NCBI GenBank assembly: GCA_034440635.1
Contig: JAOTON010001251.1
Location: forward strand, 727,001 to 791,000
Length of the DNA stretch: 64,000 nt
Direction: 5' to 3'
Source: Lepas anatifera
Taxonomy: Eukaryota; Arthropoda; Thecostraca; Lepadidae
The notes below the pieces were generated by a model. The model did not search any database. It worked only from the letters and a program-made list of their open reading frames with translations, and was not told the origin of the DNA. Positions 15,440-64,000 of the stretch are shown here, piece after piece; the stretch's first letter is position 1; every line of letters starts with the position of its first letter. Position numbers and translations under genes: made by a program.

Positions 15440-17096
15440 CATATGGTAATTATGCAACTGAAGCGTTTTACCTACAGCGGCAGCCCATGGTTCGAAGCCC
15501 TCGCTCACGGCACTTTTCCCCTTTGCGACCTGGACCTCAGTTGAAAGGCCCTCAGGCATCCGCAGATATCTTACAGCCTTGTGTAAACCTGTAAAATTAC
15601 CGAACCTATAGTCCACAACCAACTCAGTACGTATTTCACCAGAAACCATCTGCTTTCACACACGCAACACGGCTACCGGAAGAATCATTCTACCGAAACT
15701 GCGCTCACAGTAGTTACTGACCAGGCGTACCAGGCCATGGATAAGGGGCATATTTTAATACTAGTTCTTACGGATCTTTCAAAATGCTTCGATGTAATTT
15801 GTCACGAGAAATTGCTGGAAAAATTTGAGCAGTATGGTGTTGACGACCACTGGTTCAGGGATTACCTCCGCAATCACTATCAACAAGTCAAAATTACGAA
15901 CGGTTTTAGCGGTGGCGCAACAACACAAGGGAATGGCAGTCCGAAACTCTCCAAATCACTCCAAAACTCGGTGGGCGTTTTCCAAAGCGGAAGTTTGTCC
16001 TGTATCGTGTTTTCAATCTTCGCAAACGACATGAATCTGTATATTAAGAATTCCACCATGGTTCAATTCTGTGACGACGTTCAGCTCATCATATCCGGTC
16101 CAAAATAGAACCTTGATACTGTGGTATCATTGCTTGGGCATGACATAGCTGTACTTTTAGATTGGTTTTCTCAAAACGCCCTCAAAATCAACCCAGCAAA
16201 AACCCAGTTCATCGTACTCGGAACCCGTGCAATGCTCCAAAATTTGCCAAAAATTAGTATTCGGGTGGGCAACACAGTAGTAACAGAAACAAGGGAAGTT
16301 AAAAACCTAGCCGTGCATATGGACCGGAACCTGACGTTCGAATCGCATGTTGATAGCATCACTAGGAAATGTACTGGCATTCTCATTGGACTCATGCACA
16401 TTCGGCACATCATTCCGCTGTCAGTACTGAAACTATTAATACAGTCACTCGTCATATCTCACATCAGGTACTGTATTTCAATTTATGGGACTTGTGGAAC
16501 AACTCAACTCCACCGAATTAAAAAAGTGATCAACTTCTGTGCTCGCGTCTTAACTGGGAAGAGAAAGTTTCAGCACATTTCTCGGGAAGTAGCCAGATTA
16601 CGACTGCCTGACCCCGCACATCTGCTTACCTACCACCGGTTGAGCATTGTTCATAGCGTGTTGATGACCGGTGAGCCGTGTGTGATTGGTGAAATGTTTA
16701 CCTTTACTGACCATAGCTACGGTACGCGACAGGCGGGACTTTTACGTCCCACCCGTGCTAGAAACAACGCAGGGAAGCAAAGATTATGTCATACTGCCAT
16801 TGCACAATATAATGACCTGCCACCTGATCTAAGAAGCAATACCAGAATGTCAGGTTTCCGAAACTCACTGAGAAGCTTATTGGGCCTGTAAGTGTAAGCT
16901 CGCAGTATTTTATATCATATTACGTGTGTGATTGCATTTGAGTACTTGTGCTTTTACTGCCTGTATCGCTGACTTCACTGTTACTTTTACACTATCCACG
17001 ACCCCTTCATTGAATTGACGATGGAACATGAAAAGCCCTGTATCGAGTGTAAGGATGTTCTGAAATACATTGATTGATTGATTGATAGATTGACTG
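15440..17096 (+). mobile_element. 5'-truncated non-LTR (LINE) retrotransposon, CR1/L2-like
   Basis: A truncated copy holding reverse transcriptase coding sequence (described separately), a roughly 180-bp 3' untranslated part and a terminal run of TGAT/TTGA repeats at about 17,067-17,096. Short microsatellite 3' ends instead of poly(A) are usual in the CR1/L2 group (family knowledge). The endonuclease half is missing, as expected after truncated target-primed insertion. The left limit is approximate, because the sequence before 15,555 has diverged too far to follow. Confidence 0.8.
15555..16894 (+). pseudogene. decayed reverse transcriptase of a non-LTR retrotransposon
   Basis: The reading frame of 15,737 extends upstream to about 15,587. 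It contains EPIVHNQLSTYF and then QHGYRKNHSTETAL, the conserved fingers region of CR1/L2-type reverse transcriptases. Downstream follow VLTDLSKCFD (motif A, catalytic Asp), a degenerate motif B around VGVFQSGSLS (normally GVPQGS) and FCDD (motif C, both Asp kept). A thumb-like region runs to the stop at 16,892-16,894. An in-frame TAG at 16,106-16,108 splits the protein. A frame break is needed near 15,587 to join the RPIS-like segment upstream. The enzyme would copy the element's RNA at a nicked target, but this copy is inactive. No other part of the element is intact. Confidence 0.88.
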
Positions 17097-38267: not shown

Positions 38268-40903
38268 CTGCAGACACGCGCTGATATTTAGACATGAAAA
38301 CACTCGCTGATATCTAGACACGAAGACATGTGCTGGTGTCCAGACACGAAGACACACGCTGGTATCCAGACAAATCGCCGGGCTGGTATCCAGACACGCA
38401 GACACTCGCTGATATCTAGACTCGAAGACACGTGCTGGTGTCCAGACACGCTCTACTATCCAGACGCGCGCTGGTGTCCAGACACGCAGACACGTGCTGG
38501 TATCCAGACACGCGCTGGTATACAGACATGTCGACACGCGCTGGTATCCAGACACCCAGACACGCACTAGATCCAGACACGCACTAGATCCAGACACGCA
38601 GACAAGCGCTGGTATTCAGACACGCGGACACGCGCTAGTATCCAGACATGTAGACAAGCGCTAGTATCCAGACACACAGATACGCACTGGTATCTAGACA
38701 CGCAGACACGCGCTAATATCCAGATACACGTTAGTATCCAGACACGCAGACAAGTACTGGTATCCAGACACGCAGACACGCGCTAGTATCCAGACACACG
38801 CTAGTATCCAGACACGCAGACACGCGCTGGTATCCAGACCCGCAGACAAGTACTGGTATCCAGACACGCAGACACGCGCTAGTATCCAGACACACGCTAG
38901 TATCCAGACACGCAGACACACGCTAGTATCCAGACACGCAGACACGCGCTGGTATCCAGACACACGCTAGTATCCAGACACGCAGACACGCGCTGGTATC
39001 CAGACACGCAGACACGCACTGGTATCCAGACACGCAGACACGCGCTGGTATCCAGACACACGCTAGTATCCAGACACGCAGATACGCGCTGCTACCCAGA
39101 CACGCAGACACGCGCTGGTATCCAGACACGCAGACACGCGCTAGTATCCAGACACACGCTAGTATCCAGACACGCAGACACGCGCTGGTATCCAGACACG
39201 CAGACACGCACTGGTATCCAGACACGCAGACACGCGCTGGTATCCAGACACACGCTAGTATCCAGACACGCAGACACGCACTGGTATCCAGACACGCAGA
39301 CACGCGCTGGTATCCAGACACACGCTAGTATCCAGACACGCAAACACGCGCTGGTATCCAGACACGCAGACACGCGCTGGTATCCAGACACACGCTAGTA
39401 TCCAGACACGCAGATACGCGCTAGTATCCAGACACGCAGACACGCGCTGGTATCCAGACACGCAGACACGCGCTGGTATCCATACACGCAGACACGCACT
39501 GGTATCCAGACACGCAGACACGCGCTGGTATCCAGACACACGCTAGTATCCAGACACGCAGACACGCGCTGATATCCAGACACACGCTAGTATCCAGACA
39601 CGCAGACACGCGCTGGTATCCAGACACGCAGACACGCACTGGTATCCAGACACACGCTAGTATCCAGACACGCAGATACGCGCTAGTATCCAGACACGCA
39701 GACACGCGCTGGTATCCAGACACGCAGACACGCGCTGGTATCCAGACACACGCTAGTATCCAGACACGCAGATACGCGCTAGTATCCAGACACGCAGACA
39801 CGCGCTGGTATCCAGACACGCAGACACGCGCTGGTATCCAGACACGCAGACACGCGCTAGTATCCAGACACACGCTAGTATCCAGACACGCAGACACGCA
39901 CTGGTATCCAGACACGCAGACACGCACTGGTATCCAGACACGCAGACACGCGCTGGTATCCAGACACACGCTAGTATCCAGACACGCAGATACGCGCTAG
40001 TATCCAGACACGCAGACACGCGCTGGTATCCAGACACGCAGACACGCGCTGGTATCCAGACTATACGCAGACACGCGCTGGTATCCAGACACACGCTAGT
40101 ATCCAGACACGCAGACACGCGCTGGTATCCAGACACGCAGACACGCGCTGGTATCCAGACACGCAGACACGCGCTAGTATCCAGACACACGCTAGTATCC
40201 AGACACGCAGACACGCGCTGGTATCCAGACACGCAGACACGCGCTGGTATCCAGACACGCAGACACGCACTGGTATCCAGACACGCGCTGGTATCCAGAC
40301 ACACGCTAGTATCCAGACACGCAGATACGCGCTGGTATCCAGACACGCAGACACGCGCTGGTATCCAGACACGCAGACACGCGCTAGTATCCAGACACAC
40401 GCTAGTATCCAGACACGCAGACACGCGCTGGTATCCAGACACGCAGACACGCACTGGTATCCAGACACGCAGACACGCGCTGGTATCCAGACACACGCTA
40501 GTATCCAGACACGCAGACACGCGCTGGTATCCAGACACACGCTAGTATCCAGACACGCAGACACGCGCTGGTATCCAGACACGCAGACACGCGCTGGTAT
40601 CCAGACACGCAGACACGCGCTGGTATCCAGACACGCAGACACGCGCTGGTATCCAGACACGCAGATACGCGCTGGTATCCAGACACGCAGACACGCGCTG
40701 GTATCCAGACACACGCTAGTATCCAGACACGCAGACACGCGCTGGTATCCAGACACGCAGACACGCGCTAGTATCCAGACACGCAGACACGCGCTGGTAT
40801 CCAGACACGCAGACACGCGCTGGTATCCAGACACACGCTAGTATCCAGACACGCAGATACGCGCTAGTATCCAGACACGCAGACACGCGCTAGTATCCAG
40901 ACG
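38268..40903. repeat. 2.6-kb minisatellite of interleaved 26-bp and 18-bp units
   Basis: The long unit GTATCCAGACACGCAGACAC plus GCGCTG has a 26-bp period (for example GTAT at 40,571 and 40,597). The short unit GTATCCAGACACACGCTA has 18 bp. They alternate irregularly, often as an 18+26 pair of 44 bp. The left edge (38,268-38,700) is degenerate and the rest highly uniform. The overlapping minus-strand open frames of up to 261 codons (ACLDTSACLRVW-type) are repeat artefacts: 26-bp units read the same in every frame. Confidence 0.97.
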
Positions 40904-44200: not shown

Positions 44201-47188
44201 TGGAGACTGGAAACTGGTGAACGCTGGCAGTGACACGGTACTGAAGGGGCAGAGTGACCACCCACACTGTTGGGAAGAAACAGCTGTTACCGCAGCATCA
44301 GTGTCCAGTGACAGCGGCGGTGTGTTGGACAGGGTGGGTGTGTCTGTGGGAGATACCTGGACGTCAGGCAGACTGGCGGTTTCAAGTGGCGTGTTTCAGG
44401 GCGCGGACGCGGTGGCGGTGCCTGCGCCAAAGAGCGGAACTGGGAGAGATAGCTCTCAGCACAAAGGATATCAGCTGATCACGTGAGTTGTTGAAGCGGC
44501 ACGTTTGTTTGATTCTGAGGATGACACGTTTTTTATTGGAAGGGACCCAGTATTTTGTGTCACAGAACTCTCGGGGGCACTGCATCGAAACGTCACAGCT
44601 CTTCTGGTCAGATGCTCCCGCATATACGAGCAGCAAGTCACTTAAGAATGGAGAAACATAGTTAACTGGTGAACCCAATCGATGGGATACAACATTTAAA
44701 GTCTGTCCTGACATCTGACTTACCTATTTGTGTGACAGTTTTTCACGAGATCATTTTTAAACTATTTTGCATTCAGTCGCCAATGGCGCAACACTGAGAT
44801 CACTGACTGTTCCTGTCTTAGAAAGTAAACTGAAGTACCTATTCAGCTGACTCGAATAAAACGTTGCACAAGTGGAACGGAACGTGAAGAGCGGAGGCTG
44901 ATGCACTGCACTAATTCCTATGATTTTACAAGACTGCAGGTGCTGTTGCGTTCTGTAGGCGCACGCCAATGATCACCACTTGGAATAATCCTTGGTGAAT
45001 GACTGCTCCTCAAAATCATTAATCTGAGTCCCAGATTGCATACCAGAGTATCAGGTCGGACAGTAGCTACCAGAAAGCCCAGCCTTATTTCGAGACTGTA
45101 TTCAAGTACTGTTCTGCTTCGCGCATGCGCCAACGATTGACTGCGGTGGCCATGCATAATTTATCGGGAGTCTCGCCATGGTCTGCTTTTTCTTTTTTGC
45201 GCTGTGTTTTTTTAATAATCATCCAGATTTTCATCACAATTTGTTTTTATAATGGTTTAAAGTGAACAAAAATTGTTTCTCTAAATAATTTACAAGGAAT
45301 ATTGGTGGTGCAGGTAATAGAACAACTAATCTGGATATGAGCTAGCCATACGGAACATGGGATTGGCCGATGGACTTGAACAAAGCACAGATTTGCAGCG
45401 GACCATCCCACGGCATGGCTCCAGAGAAGTAGGCGAACCAATCTACATGTATGCTCTGTTACCAATAGACGGCTTCAGCATAGCTGCCACGCCTGGACCT
45501 GTGCAAAGGAAGCTGTACTGATGACCGCAGTTGGCATACCCTCCCCGGACCCATCTCTCAGCTGAGTCGCTGACTGTATGCAAACCAGGAGACTGCCCTG
45601 CCATGCTCCGTCCCGTTTTGAACGACATTGGCTGTCGTGCCGTTGGGTGCAGTTTCGGCAGCCGTGGCCGCGTCTCCATCTATGGCCCGGTCAGCCGGCA
45701 TGGTCGGCAGCGTCGGCTACAGCATGTTCTGTCCTGCCGGACACTGGCCAGCCGGTAGTACGCAGGAGGGCGGCACCGTCTGACTGCCGGGCCACCTCCG
45801 GACCGGTTGGCCGCCGATGAATTATGCATCAGCGGCACCGTGGCAATCTGCCGCCGCAGTGTTTTGCCGCTCTCGCTGCTGCCGCTGCTGCTGCTCTGGG
45901 AGGCACAGTGTGGCGGCGCCCCCACCTCCTATCGGATGCACGGCTGAGCGTGGCGGAGGATGGTGCGCGCGCCGGTGCTCCCTGCTCCTGCTCCGCCGGC
46001 CGCCGCCGATGAACGCCCGCGGCGGCGGTGCTGGTGTCTTGTGTCACCCTGCAGTCCTGACAGGCGGCGGTCTCGGCGGCGGGCCCTGGAAGGACGGAGT
46101 AGCTCTCCCAGCCTTTCTCGTTCGATCCGCAGGTCACCGAGCAGCGTCTGGAGGAAAGCGTTTTTCATGCAACAAAACACCTTGTTATAACGCGTGGTTC
46201 TGGCATATAGTATTTCACTACTTTGTGCTGGATGGTACCTGAAGTAACTTACTCAAAATATTCATTCCGCTTGGCTATAATTCTACTAGATTTCTACTAA
46301 GCCATCAGCTGTCTTTGTTAACGAGTATTTGAAACACTAATACTTCATTTTAAGATTAAGCTCCGAACCACGTTTCATATATCCATTCTGAATATTCCAA
46401 ATGAGGCCTCACTTTCGCTGGGATGACGAAAACCCGGGGGACACAGAACGTCCCAGAGGACAGCTGAGGTGTCCGCACTGCACAGCTGTCCAGTTTTCAC
46501 GCTATCTCTGTGTGCTGGGAACCAGGAAAGTGTCAGAGTTTGCGCAACGCCTTTGCATAAGGGAGGAGATTCCGACACCCACGCTGTGGGTTTTGCCGGC
46601 CTTCCACCCCGCCTGAGTCATTGCAAGGTGACGTGTAAGTTACAGGATTATATTCTGCAGGGCTGTACCATGTCCTACCGCATTTTCTGCGGCGCAGACG
46701 AAAACGACGGCGCTCGGGAAGGTGCCTGTTGATCGTTTCGCCAATCGAGGTGATGGACGTGCCCCTGAGTCGAGCTTCAAACCCACGTGGTGGTAGTTGT
46801 TGTTGTCTGTGTCGACTCAAGGTGCTGGTGCCGCTTTCGTAAGCTTGTTTCCTCCCTTCTATTACTTGTTTTTCGTTTCTATATTTAAACTTTCTGTAGC
46901 TCGTTTAGCATAACGCAATCGCATTATTGCCTCCAACTTTGTCAGCCGTGGGCGCCTGCTAACATGGAATTGGACAGTCGGCATCCACGCCGTTCAGCCG
47001 ATGATCGAATCGTCTGCTGTGAGAGATGAGCGAGCCCCTGCCCGCCGGAGACCCGGCGGGTAGGCAGAGGCCGCAGCAACACCCATTCATCATGGCTGTC
47101 GCGGGCCGCTGCAGAAGGGTTGCGGGAGGTGCGGGCTGTCCTTCAGGCAGCCACATCCTGCGGCCTCCGCGGGCGTGCGACACCGCTG
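41221..47188. other. non-coding DNA with CpG-rich blocks
   Basis: CpG-rich blocks at about 42,430-43,330, 43,920-44,230 and 45,540-46,170 alternate with AT-rich DNA. Open frames occur on both strands in these blocks without motifs or splice consistency. I see no gene. Confidence 0.5.
42666..42719. repeat. 30-bp direct duplication
   Basis: GTGCCTTCTCGGCTGATCGG occurs at 42,666 and 42,696. Confidence 0.93.
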
Positions 47189-50045
47189 CACAGTGTTACA
47201 AGGAGGGCCCAAAATGGTACAAAAATCTATAACTTGCGTTCTGTCAAAGATATTGCCTTCAAATTTGGACCACAGTATGCTGACATCCTGAGCATTATTG
47301 TGGTTGAGTTACAGGTTTCAGTCAGGTCAGGTCTTTGACCTAGGTCAAGTTGAATTCTTATGTTCGTAAATGCGTTATCAGTTTCTCAAATATGTAAGGT
47401 AAAAGTTCATCTCAAAGATCTGATCTCACGAATGTTTTTTTCTTTGTGTTTTGATGCCCCGCAAATGCATCCTTTTCAGTTGACCTGAACCGAGGTCAAA
47501 TGTTTCACTGGAAGATTCTGCCAGTTTCGGTGGGAAAATTCAAATTACATCGGACGTCAATAAGTTGTTCATCCTACTTTCAGATGAGTAGCTGCTAGAC
47601 CTACCTTTTTGACTAAAATGGGCTTTCGCAGGATGACCTCAAATGAGGTCAGATGATTTGAATAGTGATTTGTAGGGTTTAACATCAGAAATGGAAAAAT
47701 AGACGAAATTCCAAGTAGGTATGTACAGTTCAACAGCATTCTGAGAGAAATGCTCGAATACCAAACTGAGCAAAATGTATTTTAGCTACTCTGGCACTAT
47801 CAACGAGTTGTAAACACCATATCGAATTCACCTAATTGAGCAGCTTGCGCAAGTAGAAATACACCATTTCACGAGCCGTTAGTAACAGCTCACTTGGCCC
47901 ATACTCATAAATAACAAAAATTGCATCCAGCAAGTTCACTAAATATAACTATATATAAAACTTCATCAAGATCAGAGACCTTAAAAAAGGCATCAGATGG
48001 GAACAAACAGCAAAATTAAGCGGCTTCATATGCTCCAAGACTTCTTTAGAACTATCAAGTAGGTTGGGGGAAGGACATGCACTTCAAACAGACAAATGTA
48101 ATTTATGGCCAAATCCGCTTTTTATGCATCCAAATCATCAGCTGAACTATGGGACGTATCCGAGTCTCCGGGTTGAGTGCCGGGAGCAACCAGAAGCGCG
48201 GAGATGTCATGATGCTTTCCAAAGGACGATCGGATGTCACGTCTGGGTAGTTCTAAGTCTTCTTAGATTGTTTTCAAGATCACCGGATCGCTAGACACCG
48301 TCAAGTGATGCAACTGGTCTTGGATTGTCGCTTTTCGGGAGGTTTTTCGGGCATGGTGCTCGCGTGCGCACCTTGTGTCTTTGTTCCTCCGCTCCTGGGC
48401 CTCCTCACTGAGCATACCGATTGGAGGAGAAGAGGCCGGATACACTCCTCCCCGTGCACGAGGAGTTTGTGGACTGAGGATGGCATGTAAAACCACGGAT
48501 ATAAGCGAACAAATTGCTGTGCTTTCTCTAAGGCATACAGGTCAAACTTGTCCGCGTTAATGACCTGAACAGAGGCATTCGCAGCCGGAAAGGATCGTGC
48601 CGAGTCTCCTGATAAGTTCCACATCCACACCAGTAATTTCAGACATCTCCACATCGTGCGCCTGAGCAGTTTCAGAGGCGGCCTGCTTACGCCTTTTCTG
48701 GCTTAGGTCTCTGTATCTCTTTTGGGGCCGGCCTCTTTTTCTTGCCAGGGGCTGGCTCGGACCTGGCTCTCCTGCCTCAGGTGCGGACGAAGACGTTGAT
48801 TCCGCTGAAGCTCCGGCTTGCACAGTGAAAGATATTTCCTCTGCCAAGAGGGTTGCATATTTCTTGAAAAAAACCTGTTCTTGTCTCGGGTGACCAATGA
48901 CCACTTCTGTCGGAAATTCATGCAAAACAATTCACGTTGCCGATTCAACATAGTGTCAGGTTCTTCTGTCAATTATTCTCCCTCCTTCAAGCGACTAATA
49001 AGGTATTTCTTTGTTACTTCGACACCGCGCTTAGCGTCGGATATTGTACCTTTATCTACCAGTTTTTCTACTAGGTCACTTTTTTACACAGGGTTCCATC
49101 TCGAGACCACAACCTTTCACCTCCGAGGTCACAAGCAAAGTGTTTCTTACCCCTTAGATCGCCTGCCTGTGTCCTTTCCAAGATAAATTCAGGTTTGATT
49201 CATGAAACCGTTTGCACCGAGGGATAATAATGCAAACGCACCTCATGTGTTTGCCTTTCATTATCGATCCAGTGTTGTGCCAAGCGTCGTATTCAAACAA
49301 ATCGGCACACTTTTCTGAGCGCATCTATTGACCAGGGTATGTGTTATGCCCAGCACTAGGTGGAAAAACCTCACTTTAGCTGTATTTTCATCCCACCTCT
49401 TTGTCTGCCGTCCATGGTTCCACCACGCGCCCCAACAAAGGCGGCCGGGCCGTGCCCTGACGGCGCGGCGGGCGGGGGATAGCGCGCGGGCCGCCGACAT
49501 AAGCTTACACAATTGGTCATTAATCACGAAAATGCAACTAAATGCAGCTGAAAATTTATGTACGCACTGTCAACATATGTGCAACTACGACTGTGGTGGT
49601 CTCATGTTGTGGGAAGATGTGGGATTTTTTGCCGGCTTAATCAAGTTTACCCTTCAGTGGAAATCTCTGAGTTGTAAATCATGAAAATACATAAAATGAA
49701 ATAAAATACTTTTAGAGAAATCACAACTTTGAAACGCATATAATTGGGCTGCAAGCAAGTCAAAGCTTTGGAAAAAATCACTCGGTGGGTTTTCGGAGAT
49801 ATGAAAGCATGTTCGCGAGCGCTCCAAGTTCCGGTACGTTCTGACAGTCAGAAGCAATATTTGTTGTCCTATCGGAAACATCACCTTTACCCCATCTAAA
49901 ATCGGATAAACATTTTATCGGAGATTGAGATATGATCCTGGATGGTCTGGGATGTTGCCCTTTGATATAAAGGCATCTTGATACATTCTGTGTTGGTCGA
50001 AAAATTGATTTTCGTACCATTTTAGGCCCTCCTTGTAACACAGTG
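47189..50045 (-). mobile_element. 2.84-kb DNA transposon with 32-bp inverted ends and 7-bp target duplication
   Basis: The ends start TTACAAGGAGGGCC (47,196) and, read from the right, TTACAAGGAGGGCC (50,038). They stay paired for 32 bp with two mismatches. CACAGTG at 47,189-47,195 and 50,039-50,045 is a perfect 7-bp duplication, so both ends of the insertion are intact. A decayed minus-strand ORF sits in the middle. The left interior (47,300-47,660) has seven AGGTCA/TGACCT half-sites, including TGACCTAGGTCA. Target duplications of 7-8 bp occur in P and Dada elements, among others (family knowledge). I cannot assign a superfamily. A CpG-rich patch at 49,418-49,500 is unlike the rest and may be captured DNA. 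Confidence 0.88.
48263..48925 (-). pseudogene. decayed ORF of the 2.84-kb transposon, uncharacterised family
   Basis: Three minus-strand reading frames join into one recognisable protein. The first (from 48,925) has a basic linker RKRGRPQKRYRDLSQKRRK and then ITGVDVELIRRLGTIL. After a frame break near 48,570 comes ALEKAQQFVRLYPWFYMPSS, then VHKLLVHGEE. After a second break near 48,450 comes PIGMLSEEAQERRNKD, then CAREHHARKTSR and SSDPVI. These blocks, in this order, recall uncharacterised proteins that are multicopy in arthropod and cnidarian genomes; that is recall, not a search result. Two frameshifts make it non-functional. The function is unknown and may be transposase or an accessory protein. 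Confidence 0.65.
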
Positions 50046-51635
50046 CGCTGCTGCCGGCTTCCCCTCTCCTCCCCACCGCCGCCGACAGCTACGGGGCAGA
50101 TGTCACCCGCGCGGAGAGGGGCCATGTGAGCCTTCTCAGAGTGTGCGAGCAGGTAAACGGACAGCGTCAGGCCGAAGGTGCTCTTTCGTTTGTTTTGCAC
50201 GCATGTTGAAGGAGCTCCAGGTTTTTTTCTTCTTGTTATGGGGAATGTTTAAACCTGAAGTGTAACGATGGGCATTGCTTTGCAGGAGCAGAATCGTGAG
50301 CTTGCTCGTGCAAACTGGCTACATTGGTAAATATAATCAGAAATATAGCTTACAAGCTTTTCTCTTGCCATCAGATAGCTTTTACAGAATTATCCGTCAT
50401 GCTTGACAGTTCGTTGACCGTTATAATTGTCTGTGCACTTAATGGCACGCCGGGAAAATCAGACGTCGTTTCTCCGTCGTGACTAGTCATGAACAGCTCA
50501 AGCTCTGCACCTTCTCTCCGCATCGTGTCTGTCGCATTGGGGCCAGATGTTGGTGTCGGGATGACGGGCAGTTCAGATGTTCTCCAGATGCGGCTCCCCG
50601 AGTAGTGGGGCGGCCTGCCGTGCGCCATGTGTTTCAGATTGGCCAGACTAAGCTCTGTTTACGTCAAGACACTGGTGATGCGCCAGATGAGGCAGTCCGT
50701 CTCTGACATAGATGCCGGCCGCCGGTCCAGATACGGGTCAAGTTCTGCACACGTCCAGACGCGCCGCAGATTATACTTATCGCCGCTCCGTAAAAACCGC
50801 CCTCTGTTTAGTGTACACAGGGCCCGGTTCTCGCTGCCGTTGCGGAGGGACCACTCCCGCCGACGCGGCTGCGGCGTCGGAAGGCAAACCGGATCGGCGT
50901 TCCCGAGGGTAATACCTGGTGCCGAACTGTACCACTCTGGGCGGCAATGGAGGTCACCGGAAAGGCTGTGGGTGGGTTCAGGGTGTGGCGGCCTTCCGGT
51001 ACTTCTCGTCACGTACCGAGGTTGCACCGCCTCACCTCCTCCAGGCGATGGGTGGCGTCACCTGGTGTCTGCTCGCCCAACATTATGTTGATGCACAATT
51101 TGTTAGGACAGTTTTTTTATTTTATCCAGGTTGGAACAGATTGCGTGTTAACGATTAACTACTTTGCCCGTTTAAGCACTAAAGTACTGATCACACGATT
51201 GAAGTAAGCTAACAATTTTAACGCCTTTTGGCCCTCATTTGCACGTTTATCAAACCATGTATATACACCAGCGTTTAGTACGACGAAATCTTCCCGAGCT
51301 CCCCTGACATGGTTTGTTTGTAGCTTGTTTCTCTCAAGTTCAGTCAGGAAATCATGCAGCTTTGACGCTGTATTGTCGGAATGACTGCAAACCCCGTGAG
51401 AAAAAATAAGAGCAAAAACATTTGGGAATCTGACGAGCGCTGGGAACGCGGCGCGAAGTTGGCGGGGCTGCTGAGCTCTGGTCAGCGGTCCATTCTTTAC
51501 TGGCAGTGTCCGGCCTTTGTCGTCCGTCCGCTCAGAACGGTGCCTGTTTTCCGCTACATCTGGGGTTTGCCGATTGGCCAGAACGGCACCGATTCCTGCT
51601 GACTCCATTCTCAGCTATTCTGGAGCGCAGACAAG

Positions 51636-59661: not shown

Positions 59662-60435
59662 TGGTGGCAGCCGAGTTCGTTCCCCTGTGGCGACGGCCGA
59701 GCAGCCTCTGTCTTCAGCTCTTCATCGAGTGAGTGACGTGCAGTCATCGTCATCTTCTCTTCATCGAAGTGAACTGCCCACCCCGTCCACTCTTCTTCGG
59801 GGAGCCGACCTCTCTTCCTCTTCACTCCATCGAGTCAGTGAGCAGGCATCGACATCGTCTCTTCACCGGGGCGAGCTACCACGCGCATACTCACAGTCCA
59901 CGCCGTCCCTCCCCGCTCAGCTCTCTCCTCCTCCTCTGCAGCAGCAGCAGCATGGCCTGAACTCAAACATGGTCTACAACTACGCGGCGGCGGCGGCGCC
60001 GGCGGCTGCCTCCAACGTGCTCTGGGATGAAGAGCGGGAGAGGCAGGCTTACGCTGCGCACCTCAGGTCGTCGTCCTATCAGCTGCACTCGCGGCAGAGA
60101 TCGGCGCTGGGGTCTTCGCACTCCGGAGTGGTGGCGGAAGCTCCATCGAGTAGCCACGGCAGACAGGGCTCGGGCGTCTCTTCTGAGGATGACACGCTCT
60201 CGCACGCCTCCTTCCCGGGTCTCTTCTACACCGGGGACGCCCCGCCGCCAGCACGCTCCAACAGCGGCGGCTCCGGTGACTGTCGGAGTGCAGGAGCTGG
60301 GTACTCGGGTATACCGGAGTTCCGGAAGATGCCGTCGCACGACTCCCTTCCCAGTGACGTGCCTCCTCCTCCGCCGCCACCTATGACGGCGATCTGTGAC
60401 GCAGTGTCAGACAACACCAGCCTGCAGGGGAGACG
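59662..60435 (+). CDS. large exon, part 1: Ser/Pro-rich adaptor-like protein (partial)
   Basis: A pyrimidine-rich acceptor TTATTTTTCTTGCGTTTCAG precedes the exon, which is entered after two bases of a codon. About 258 residues follow. They include repeated SSSSLHR/SSLHR-type motifs (59,745-59,880), SQSTPSLPAQLSPPP, a short Gln run (CAG triplets at about 59,938-59,950), an Ala run at 59,980-60,015 and a proline run PPPPPPP at about 60,360-60,382. There are no folded-domain or membrane signatures; this is disordered, phosphosite-like sequence typical of cortical scaffold and cytoskeletal adaptors. The frame ends at TGA (60,437-60,439), exactly at a consensus-like donor ACG|GTGAGT (60,435/60,436). 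Coding character nevertheless continues at once in another frame (see part 2). 5' exons are not seen in the window. Confidence 0.85.
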
Positions 60436-60436
60436 G

Positions 60437-62327
60437 TGAGTCGCTGACGTACGACCTGGACGACATCGACCGTGCCCTAGCAAGCGATGTCCCTGAAAGA
60501 GATCCTGCTAGCCTTACGCACATACGGTATGGTCCGGGTCATGAGAAGTACCCTTCATGGCCAGTTCCTGCCGCTGCTGAGCCAGAGTCTGGTCCACTTT
60601 CTGGTGGAAGCTACCGCTCCAAGTCGTGGACGGACGCCACCGATTACCCCAAAGACAGACCAGCGGGCTACACTCGGCCGCATGCCAAGAAGTCCCTGAG
60701 TGCTACGTTTCAGCAGCAGCTCAATACTGTGATGGAGAAGTGCGAAAAGATAGGACCGGAGTCGTTCCTGACCCCAGAACAGCGTGCCAAGTCTGAGTCG
60801 CCTCGTGACGATGCCAGTATGTTCCCTTGTATGGACAGAGATGGCCGTGAGTTGGGCGACAAGGACTACAACATCCCCAGTCCTCCAGAGAGGGACTACG
60901 ATGAGAGAATAGAGCGGCGACCGTCAGCCTTTACGGAGGACGTGGTGGGCCCGCGTAGTCTCTGCACGCCCTTTCTGGACCAGCTGCGGAGGGACATCGA
61001 GCTGTCTCCGGTGGAAGACGGAGAGGGAAATGATCCTTCGTGGGCGGCAGGAGACCGTGCCGACGTCGACCAACAGCCGCGATCTGGCAGGGACAGCGTC
61101 GCCACCGTCGTCACCTACAGCAGCAGCAACAGCTCCAACGAGACGATGCGGCTGTACGGCTCCTTCAGCGACATCAGCGTGATGAGCTCGTCCACCAGCA
61201 GATCTGATCCTCATCCAGACCATCAGATTGCGCACAGCTCGCGTGTCCGACCGCCGCAGAGGTTGCTGTCTGAGAACGTACTGGGCGGTCAGCAGCAGGC
61301 ACAGCACCAGCAAAGACAGAGACCAGAGTTCAAACTTGCCAAGAGTGTTGATGAATCAATTCTGAATGGCGCTGGGGGAGCCCCTCAGGACATGACCGAT
61401 TCGCGGATCTCTCCAAAGTCTCCCAGGTCGCCAGCGATCGATTACAGCAAACCTCCTTCTGTAACGGACCGCATCAAGGCTTTAGAGAGTCAGTCTCGGG
61501 AGTCGCGCCGGGACCTGCACTCCAAGTCGGTGCCGAACCTGCTGGCCGACAAGTGGTCATGGAAGGGTTCTTCAAGACTGGACAGCGAAGGGGCCCGTGT
61601 CTCGGATGCTGACATCACCTCCAATCCATCAGTGAGTCGATCCTACCGGTCCGGTCGAAGTCTGGACCAGACGGCTTCCGACCGCGACCGCGATATGGTG
61701 CTGAAGGAGATGGATGGCGACGGAGCCAGGAGGAGGATAGCGTCTCGATCTGTCAGCTCCGAACGGAGTCGTGTTGCTCCCATGACGGACACTGAAACGC
61801 GCAGAAAGTCTTTCCAGGTGGGCAGTCAGGATGCCTCAACTCTGAAGGCGATACAGAAGCAGGCGGTAATGTCGTACTACGAGCGTCAGATGAGTCGCAC
61901 TGCTACGTCTCCGTCACATTCTACTTCAGCGTCATCCAGTCTTCCAGCGTCTCAACCCAGCGCTCACTCTATCTCGCTCAGTCACTCCCGGTCACAGAAT
62001 CAGTCATCAGCGGACTGTCCGACATCGGCTCAGTCTCACACCTCCCCAACTGCCGACCCCAAGGTGCCTGAGAAGCACGAGCGCGGCTACCGCGCCGGTC
62101 CCACCTTGTGGCGGGTGCCGGAGTCTCTGCAGCCGGACTCGGCCAGACCTCGCATGACGTCTGGGATGGCCCTGCGGAGTCGCGGCCCCACCCGGCGCTC
62201 CTCCTCGGCGTCTGATAGGACCAACATCAGCACCAGCACCAGCGGTAGCAGCAGCAGCAGCAGTAGCCACAGCAGCGGCAGCCGAAGCGGTGCGGAGACC
62301 ACGGAGCCGCCCGGCGCCAGCAGAATC
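60437..62327 (+). CDS. large exon, part 2: same adaptor-like protein, shifted by one base
   Basis: About 630 open codons from 60,438 to a near-consensus donor AATC|GTGAGT at 62,327/62,328. Without splicing the frame would stop at 62,372. Likely conserved blocks are SLTYDLDDIDRALASDV (60,441 on), KYPSWPVP (about 60,550), SKSWTDATDYPKD (about 60,620), FQQQLNTVMEKCEKIGPE (about 60,708), PSPPERDYDERIERR (about 60,880), FLDQLRRDIE (about 60,970), DRIKALESQSRES (about 61,468), LHSKSVPNLLADKW (about 61,518) and STLKAIQKQAVMSYYERQ (about 61,836). A serine run lies at about 62,240-62,270. The block order reminds me of C-terminal tails of insect polarity and cytoskeleton scaffolds such as Scribble/LAP4 or Shroom. 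I cannot confirm either and give no symbol. A single extra base near 60,436 would join the two parts; an assembly error is the simplest explanation. Confidence 0.92.
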
Positions 62328-62699
62328 GTGAGTACACGATCTGGTTCTGTGCAGGCTGGTATGTCTTGGTAATGACGTCGGAATGTATCGCTGTTTAATA
62401 CCCTCTCCGCGTCGGATGAATGCGCAGACGCATTTTGTTTGCTTTTTGTGAGGGCCTGTTCAACCATAAAATTTGACTGATGCCAATCTTCAGGATGCTA
62501 ATATGTGACCTTAGCATGCCAGTCAATAGTCAGCCCGTTCTCTGGCCGAGCACGCCCCGCCCGTCTGTCCTTGGCCGTGCTTTTTACCTGGCCGCCTTGG
62601 TCGGTGTGCGTGTGGCGTGTCCACCCATCCCGCCGACTTGCCTCACCCTGGACTTCTTTGGCAAGTTACGCAGTCTGGGAATTGAGACGTCGTAGTCAG

Positions 62700-62954: not shown

Positions 62955-63373
62955 TCTGCAGCAGTCGCCGTTACGGACCCAAATTCCGCCGGGTGAAACT
63001 GGAGGAACGTGTCGGAGAGTTCCCGGCATTCTGGCCGTTACATCCGTTATTCTCACCTCATAGATAGTGGTTAGCAACTGAGTCTTCTATGAACAGGTTC
63101 GTCGACCAAGTCGAGCGTAGGCGGCGCTACCGGTCACGGCCGCAGACCTTTCCCCCAAAAATCCCAGTCGTGTAAGAAATTTCCTTCTTTAAACTGGATC
63201 GGGAGAAAAAAGAGTACTATCGGAAGCTTGATCCAAAGGCAACAATGCAACCCGAATTGGAAGAGAAGAGTTGGTAGTTTCCTGACAATGCCAATGTAAG
63301 GCGGCAAGTTCGCTACCTCTCATCCCACCTTTTATCCGCCTCGAGGCAGCTGACCTCAACAACCGGGACTGCC
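62955..63373. other. intron or 3' flank
   Basis: No coding signal seen after the candidate exon. The sequence is mixed up to the tetranucleotide repeat. Confidence 0.5.
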
Positions 63374-63775
<402 letters not shown>

Positions 63776-64000
63776 CTGACTGTGTTGTTAATCTTTCCGT
63801 CGCTGCTTGCTAGTTGGCTTTCTTTCTCTTTAGGCTACTACTTGTCCATTTTCATAGCGTAACTTCCGTGATATTTCCTTTCGTCGTTTACTTTTGACTG
63901 GATGGTTTGCTCACCCTTATCAAGGGTGATTGAACTCACACTTTTCCTTGGACACTAATCATCGGTAGCCATTGAGCACTGTCACTTCACACACAGTGAG
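63776..64000. other. non-coding DNA at window end
   Basis: Nothing recognised. Confidence 0.5.

What the first reader, a model, noticed from the sequence alone, without database searches (positions are those of the whole stretch)
47189..50045. Complete 2.84-kb transposon copy with 7-bp target duplication and an unclassified ORF family
Both 32-bp inverted ends (two mismatches) and a perfect CACAGTG duplication are visible, so the element boundaries are exact. The ORF inside is not a transposase type I recognise, yet its block order (LYPWFYMPSSVHKLL, SEEAQERRNKD, HARKTSR, SSDPVI) recalls multicopy proteins annotated as uncharacterised in invertebrates. If so, this copy ties that orphan protein family to defined DNA-transposon ends.
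Basis: partly seen in the sequence, partly recalled or inferred. Interest (0 to 1): 0.75.

Follow-up and report, generated by a model that had tools for sequence, protein, structure and literature searches.

The report
Internally deleted Transib transposon family
This is a crippled copy of a known kind of jumping gene (Transib, a relative of the enzyme that shuffles antibody genes), in what is probably an arthropod genome; the supposed 7-base duplication is really part of the element's own ends.

Summary
The transposon is real, but its boundaries, duplication and classification change. CACAGTG, or a one-base variant, stands outside both reported ends in the copies examined, so it is the element's terminal heptamer, not a target duplication. 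The element is 47189-50045, flanked by a 5-bp duplication CGCTG. Of 23 copies with both ends, 19 have a perfect 5-bp duplication, 15 of these CRNYG. Each end reads heptamer, 23 bp, A-rich nonamer, like a 23-RSS. The "orphan" ORF is a Transib transposase: the family ORF matches HzTransib (PDB 6pqn) at E 5.8e-20. It joins positions 1-136 to 517-606 of a 686-position Transib profile; about 380 positions, with both catalytic aspartates, are gone. The window copy is also broken by frameshifts. The family is non-autonomous: three sibling copies keep the second aspartate and no intact parent was found among the scored candidates; another Transib family in the genome has intact 781-782-aa ORFs, though its ends lack the nonamer. 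The few substitutions between subfamilies give no clear sign of selection. The host is probably an arthropod. New member of a known kind.

The parts
47184..47188 (.). left target-site duplication CGCTG (5 bp)
   Evidence: identical to 50046-50050; 5-bp repeat perfect in 19 of 23 copies with both ends
47189..47195 (+). left terminal heptamer CACAGTG
   Evidence: 29 of 31 distinct left ends have exactly this
47219..47227 (+). left nonamer-like ACAAAAATC, 23 bp after the heptamer
   Evidence: 26 of 31 distinct left ends; 8 of 9 bases as in the vertebrate RSS nonamer ACAAAAACC (RSS consensus recalled)
48377..48409 (-). SEEAQERRNKD: Transib stretch that holds the catalytic glutamate (which E is catalytic was not settled here)
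   Evidence: coordinates worked out from the frame 48263-48496(-); corresponds to HzTransib LSEEASEARNKD; S-E-E invariant in the 8 proteins of alignment A1, which does not hold the window copy
48301..48654 (-). C-terminal transposase remnant in its main frame (LYPWFYMPSSVHKLL)
   Evidence: matches 6pqn at E 2.7e-9 on its own
48557..48925 (-). N-terminal transposase remnant (GRPQKRYRDLSQKRRK) running across the deletion junction into ITGVDVELIRR
   Evidence: frame; the family ORF, not this frame itself, aligns to positions 1-136 of a Transib profile, 42.6 bits
48635..48650 (-). approximate internal deletion junction
   Evidence: homology to copies that keep the middle (L059, L061, L062) starts at position 509 of the 1005-nt ORF stretch; window position derived, about +-10 bp
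50007..50015 (-). right nonamer-like ACGAAAATC, 23 bp inside the heptamer
   Evidence: 22 of 24 distinct right ends; 7 of 9 bases as in the RSS nonamer
50039..50045 (-). right terminal heptamer, CACTGTG reading inward (CACAGTG on +)
   Evidence: 23 of 24 distinct right ends
50046..50050 (.). right target-site duplication CGCTG (5 bp)

Best explanation
The element is a non-autonomous, internally deleted member of the Transib superfamily of cut-and-paste DNA transposons. A full-length parent encoded a RAG1-like DDE transposase. An internal deletion of about 380 codons removed the part with both catalytic aspartates and left an N-terminal piece joined in frame to the C-terminal piece with the glutamate. 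Shown here: ends, 5-bp duplications, the join, many copies. Inferred: such copies kept both RSS-like ends and were moved in trans by a transposase made elsewhere, most likely a parent of the same family that is lost or was not found, less likely a related Transib that is still intact in this genome. The transposase would cut at the heptamer, excise the element and insert it at a site of the form CRNYG, leaving a 5-bp duplication. The remaining ORF is most likely passenger sequence in decay.
For: Family ORF against PDB: HzTransib 6pqn E 5.8e-20, next hit E 2.5; the window's own frame E 2.7e-9. Profile of 12 Transib-like proteins (11 database proteins and L060): two domains, positions 1-136 and 517-606 of 686. 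5-bp duplication perfect in 18 of 22 pairs against a shuffled mean of 1.7, maximum 8 in 10,000; without one pair whose ends lie about 16 kb apart 17 of 21, with two more copies 19 of 23. Heptamer-23-nonamer ends. Sibling copies that keep the second aspartate (TMIDG) and the glutamate, about 90% identical to the window over the left 1.45 kb and, in L059 and L061, 85% over a further 0.5 kb. Transib ORFs of 781-782 aa at four loci and 753 aa at one; one, L060, matches 6pqn at E 6.4e-102 and has D, D and E, with ends that also begin CACAGTG. Hztransib has a 5-bp duplication (PMC1852546, passages); 5-bp duplications are typical of Transib (PMC4411706, passages).
Against: 4 of 23 copies lack a perfect 5-bp duplication (one, two, three and four mismatches). 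The duplication of L060 is off by one base, and L060's ends have no nonamer at 23 bp (3 and 5 of 9 bases), which speaks against L060-type transposase as the mover of this family. The full-length parent was not found, so movement in trans is inference. Pfam gave no family for the window's frames.
Confidence: 0.96

Rival explanations
2. A RAG-like (ProtoRAG/TransibSU) element with RAG1L and RAG2L rather than a plain Transib.
For: An RSS-like heptamer and 5-bp duplications are shared by both groups (PMC7204232, passages).
Against: The ORF matches HzTransib and no RAG1 chain up to E 10. The genome's intact member L060 hits RAG1 chains at best E 0.005 against 6.4e-102 for HzTransib. No RAG2 search was run; RAG1 family searches of the genome did not complete.
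Confidence: 0.02
3. The fused N+C protein is a kept product, such as a repressor that binds the ends without cutting, like KP of the P element (comparison recalled).
For: An open frame of 304 aa in 3 rows and of 303 aa in one of the 150 rows; the join keeps the frame. dN/dS is below 1 in three of four comparisons (0.73, 0.51, 0.84).
Against: Between the A and B consensuses dN/dS is 0.73 over the N part (8.5 synonymous, 21.5 nonsynonymous changes) and 3.0 over the C part (1.5 and 14.5); A-C and B-C, C part only, give 0.51 and 0.84, but group C once carried a longer ORF. The A consensus (4 copies) has an in-frame stop. The B consensus is frameshifted after the glutamate motif compared with L059 and L062.
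Confidence: 0.04

Closest known systems
Transib superfamily (member with a structure: HzTransib, Helicoverpa zea, PDB 6pqn)
   Same: Transposase sequence, 5-bp duplication, ends beginning CAC with RSS-like layout
   Different: This family lacks the stretch with both catalytic aspartates; 2857 bp against 3518 bp for Hztransib (size from PMC1852546, passages); spacer 23 bp at both ends, where PMC8355894 (section 3) lists symmetric Transib ends with 20-22 bp and some with 12/23
RAG1 / ProtoRAG / TransibSU
   Same: RSS-like heptamer, 5-bp duplication, glutamate stretch (resemblance to RAG1 recalled)
   Different: The ORF gave no match to RAG1 chains; no RAG2 partner known here (not searched)
Internal-deletion derivatives such as Ds or KP (recalled)
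   Same: Ends kept, coding core lost, many copies
   Different: Different transposase superfamily

Membership tests
Transib superfamily | Transposase homologous to Transib TPases | tested here: met
   6pqn E 5.8e-20 for the family ORF, E 2.7e-9 for the window frame; 19 database proteins at E <= 0.01 among 153 candidates
Transib superfamily | 5-bp target duplication | tested here: met
   19 of 23 copies perfect
Transib superfamily | Ends beginning with an RSS-like heptamer (CAC...) | tested here: met
   29 of 31 left ends CACAGTG, 23 of 24 right ends CACTGTG
Transib superfamily | D-D-E triad (needed only of autonomous members) | tested here: not met
   Only the glutamate stretch is left in the window family; both D lost with the deletion. 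Present in L060 of another family. So the window element can only be a non-autonomous member.
Transib superfamily | Nick-hairpin excision by the transposase | not testable with these tools
   needs biochemistry
RAG-like transposon | RAG1L with RAG2L in the same element | tested here: inconclusive
   No RAG1 match for the ORF; RAG1 family search of the genome did not complete; RAG2 not searched
Superfamily with 6-7-bp duplications (e.g. Dada, recalled) | 6-7-bp target duplication | tested here: not met
   the repeat outside the heptamer is 5 bp

The most novel reading that the evidence does not exclude
The truncated N+C protein of subfamily B, which has no cutting core, is made and binds Transib ends, acting as a natural brake on intact Transib transposases in the same genome.
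Probability: 0.05. Interest if true: 0.45.

Novelty: new member of a known kind. Interest (0 to 1): 0.2.

Why it matters
It removes an apparent orphan superfamily. It also shows a genome with many Transib remnants: 150 scored match rows of 501 candidates, some loci giving two rows, next to five loci with ORFs of 753-782 aa. A paper says autonomous Transibs usually occur in one or at most a few copies per animal genome (PMC4411706, passages); five is not far from that, and the excess is in defective copies. Intact transposases and deletion families with different RSS-like ends side by side would suit tests of how the RAG1 lineage recognises its ends.

Tried and rejected
Vertebrate (lamprey) host: considered because of the genome size of 1.04 Gb and the window's G+C of 0.51, and because one paper says Transib is absent from vertebrates (PMC8355894, passages). 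Rejected: Chitin_bind_4 gives 150 scored matches of 715 candidates, each listed row over the cut-off, which points to an arthropod; the species was not determined. The 14 control genomes had none, but I do not know whether any is an animal.

Pfam on five window frames gave nothing; on L060 it gave only a RAG1 hit below the cut-off (E 0.0052). Rfam gave nothing in the window. The bacterial promoter/terminator scan is not informative here. The first paper search gave 0. A search for Transib in crustaceans matched 123 papers on at least 3 of 5 terms; 14 of the 15 listed do not hold the word Transib. That this family is unnamed in print was not shown; Repbase could not be searched.

Dropped rows: one duplication pair (L042 with L007) left out of the final count because its ends lie about 16 kb apart (its 5-mers do match); L044 not counted apart from L045, with which it shares flank and insert; copies L013 and L015 left out of both subfamilies; copies L045, L049 and L054 left out of the consensus for length. 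C283/C1319 and C1595/C1609 share flanks and look like duplicates in the assembly.

Full report
What was claimed.

Ends and duplication. The inverted repeat is real: 47188-47230 against 50004-50046, 43 nt, 91% complementary. The genome that holds the window has 1.04 Gb in 2126 contigs; 40 of 132 first-look candidates for the left end were scored and listed, at 89-100% identity. When the ends of fetched copies were read, CACAGTG or a one-base variant stood outside TTACAAGG and CCTTGTAA, whereas the five bases beyond it differed from copy to copy but mostly agreed within a copy. Of 22 pairs of ends, 18 have a perfect 5-bp repeat; shuffled right flanks give a mean of 1.7 and at most 8 in 10,000 trials. 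I drop one pair, though it matches, because its ends lie about 16 kb apart, giving 17 of 21; two more copies fetched later both have the repeat (L063 CGCCG, L064 CAGTG), so 19 of 23, of which 15 fit CRNYG. The four exceptions are L010/L039 (two mismatches), L051 (three), L052 (four) and L034 (one). The order 5-mer, 7-mer, element, 7-mer, 5-mer excludes a 12-bp duplication. CACAGTG looked like a duplication because of its near-palindromic form: the right end reads CACTGTG inward, so both ends show CACAGTG on the plus strand.

RSS-like layout. Of 31 distinct left ends, 29 begin CACAGTG and 26 have ACAAAAATC exactly 23 bp further in; of 24 distinct right ends, 23 begin CACTGTG and 22 have ACGAAAATC at the same place. 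The pattern that found these ends fixes the last base of the heptamer, and a few ends come from loci that look duplicated (L059/L061, L032/L035). The nonamers share 8 and 7 of 9 bases with the RSS nonamer (consensus recalled). Transib ends with RSS-like heptamers and nonamers are described in PMC8355894 (section 3 read).

The ORF. The family ORF (majority of 12 copies) matches HzTransib, PDB 6pqn, at E 5.8e-20 over residues 170-262 of the 279-aa query; the window's own frame 48301-48654(-) matches at E 2.7e-9. One relative was found with the short query (E <= 0.001) and 19 with a query padded to Transib length (E <= 0.01 among 153 candidates), among them a beetle and an ant protein. A profile of 11 database proteins and L060 matches the family ORF in two pieces, model positions 1-136 (42.6 bits) and 517-606 (127 bits) of 686. 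The missing 380 positions hold both catalytic aspartates; the glutamate stretch SEEAQERRNKD stays. Three copies, L059, L061 (same flanks as L059, probably one locus twice) and L062, keep the middle with TMIDG and the glutamate but lack the N-terminus and first aspartate. Among 150 scored rows of 641 candidates they are the only ones above 90% identity for that middle; partial matches at 71-76% exist (for example C1006, C2117), and full-length ones start at 56% and below. So the family exists as at least two kinds of deletion derivative, and no intact parent was found in what was scored.

Autonomous relatives. The C-terminal search gave 150 scored rows of 501 candidates, some loci giving two rows. 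Four loci have open frames of 781-782 aa and one of 753 aa, 57% identical to this family in that stretch. One, L060, matches 6pqn over residues 223-695 at E 6.4e-102, has WGFDGA, TMVDGK and SEEAQE in alignment A1, and is 3870 bp long with ends that begin CACAGTG on both sides. Its ends have no nonamer-like sequence at 23 bp (3 and 5 of 9 bases), and its flanks share CAGT, one base short of five. This makes it a poor candidate for moving the window's family.

Age and selection. Over the ORF stretch, the 4 copies of the window's subfamily A differ by 1.5-1.9% from their own consensus, the 21 of subfamily B by 0.6-1.9%, and A from B by 6.4%; L013 and L015 were left out of both. dN/dS between A and B is 0.73 (N part) and 3.0 (C part, only 1.5 synonymous changes); against the longer group C it is 0.51 and 0.84 over the C part. 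A carries an in-frame stop. This gives no clear sign of selection on the fused ORF, but the numbers are too small to exclude weak selection.

Host. Chitin_bind_4 gives 150 scored matches of 715 candidates, each listed row above the cut-off, which fits an arthropod. Transib is at home there: Hztransib is from a moth and has a 5-bp duplication GCTCG (PMC1852546, passages).

Verdict. A non-autonomous, internally deleted Transib family. It is a new member of a known kind; whether it already has a name in Repbase could not be checked.

Noticed in passing
L049 3649-4100, L054 3649-4093, L055 3692-4136: A 445-452-bp nested insert with inverted ends (AGGGAATGTGGCACC...) sits at the same place (about base 200) in three copies with different flanks, so an element carrying another insert was probably mobilised again.
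   Followed up: partly
own genome, rows with 163-aa open frames: Many loci share a 163-aa open frame 50-52% identical to the first half of the Transib middle: probably another high-copy deletion family.
   Followed up: no
window 15587-16888 (+): Reverse transcriptase remnant (RVT_1, E 1.4e-16 for 15587-16105), perhaps of a LINE.
   Followed up: no
window 60387-62369 (+): 661-aa open frame, serine-rich, no Pfam family at E 0.1; recalls Shroom-type proteins (recalled, not tested).
   Followed up: no
window about 38900-40840 and 63300-63800: Long tandem arrays visible as repeated peptides in the frames.
   Followed up: no
G000 C1181/C1959, C283/C1319, C1595/C1609; C1650: Copies with the same flanks on two contigs (likely duplicate haplotypes) and a local duplication on C1650.
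   Followed up: partly
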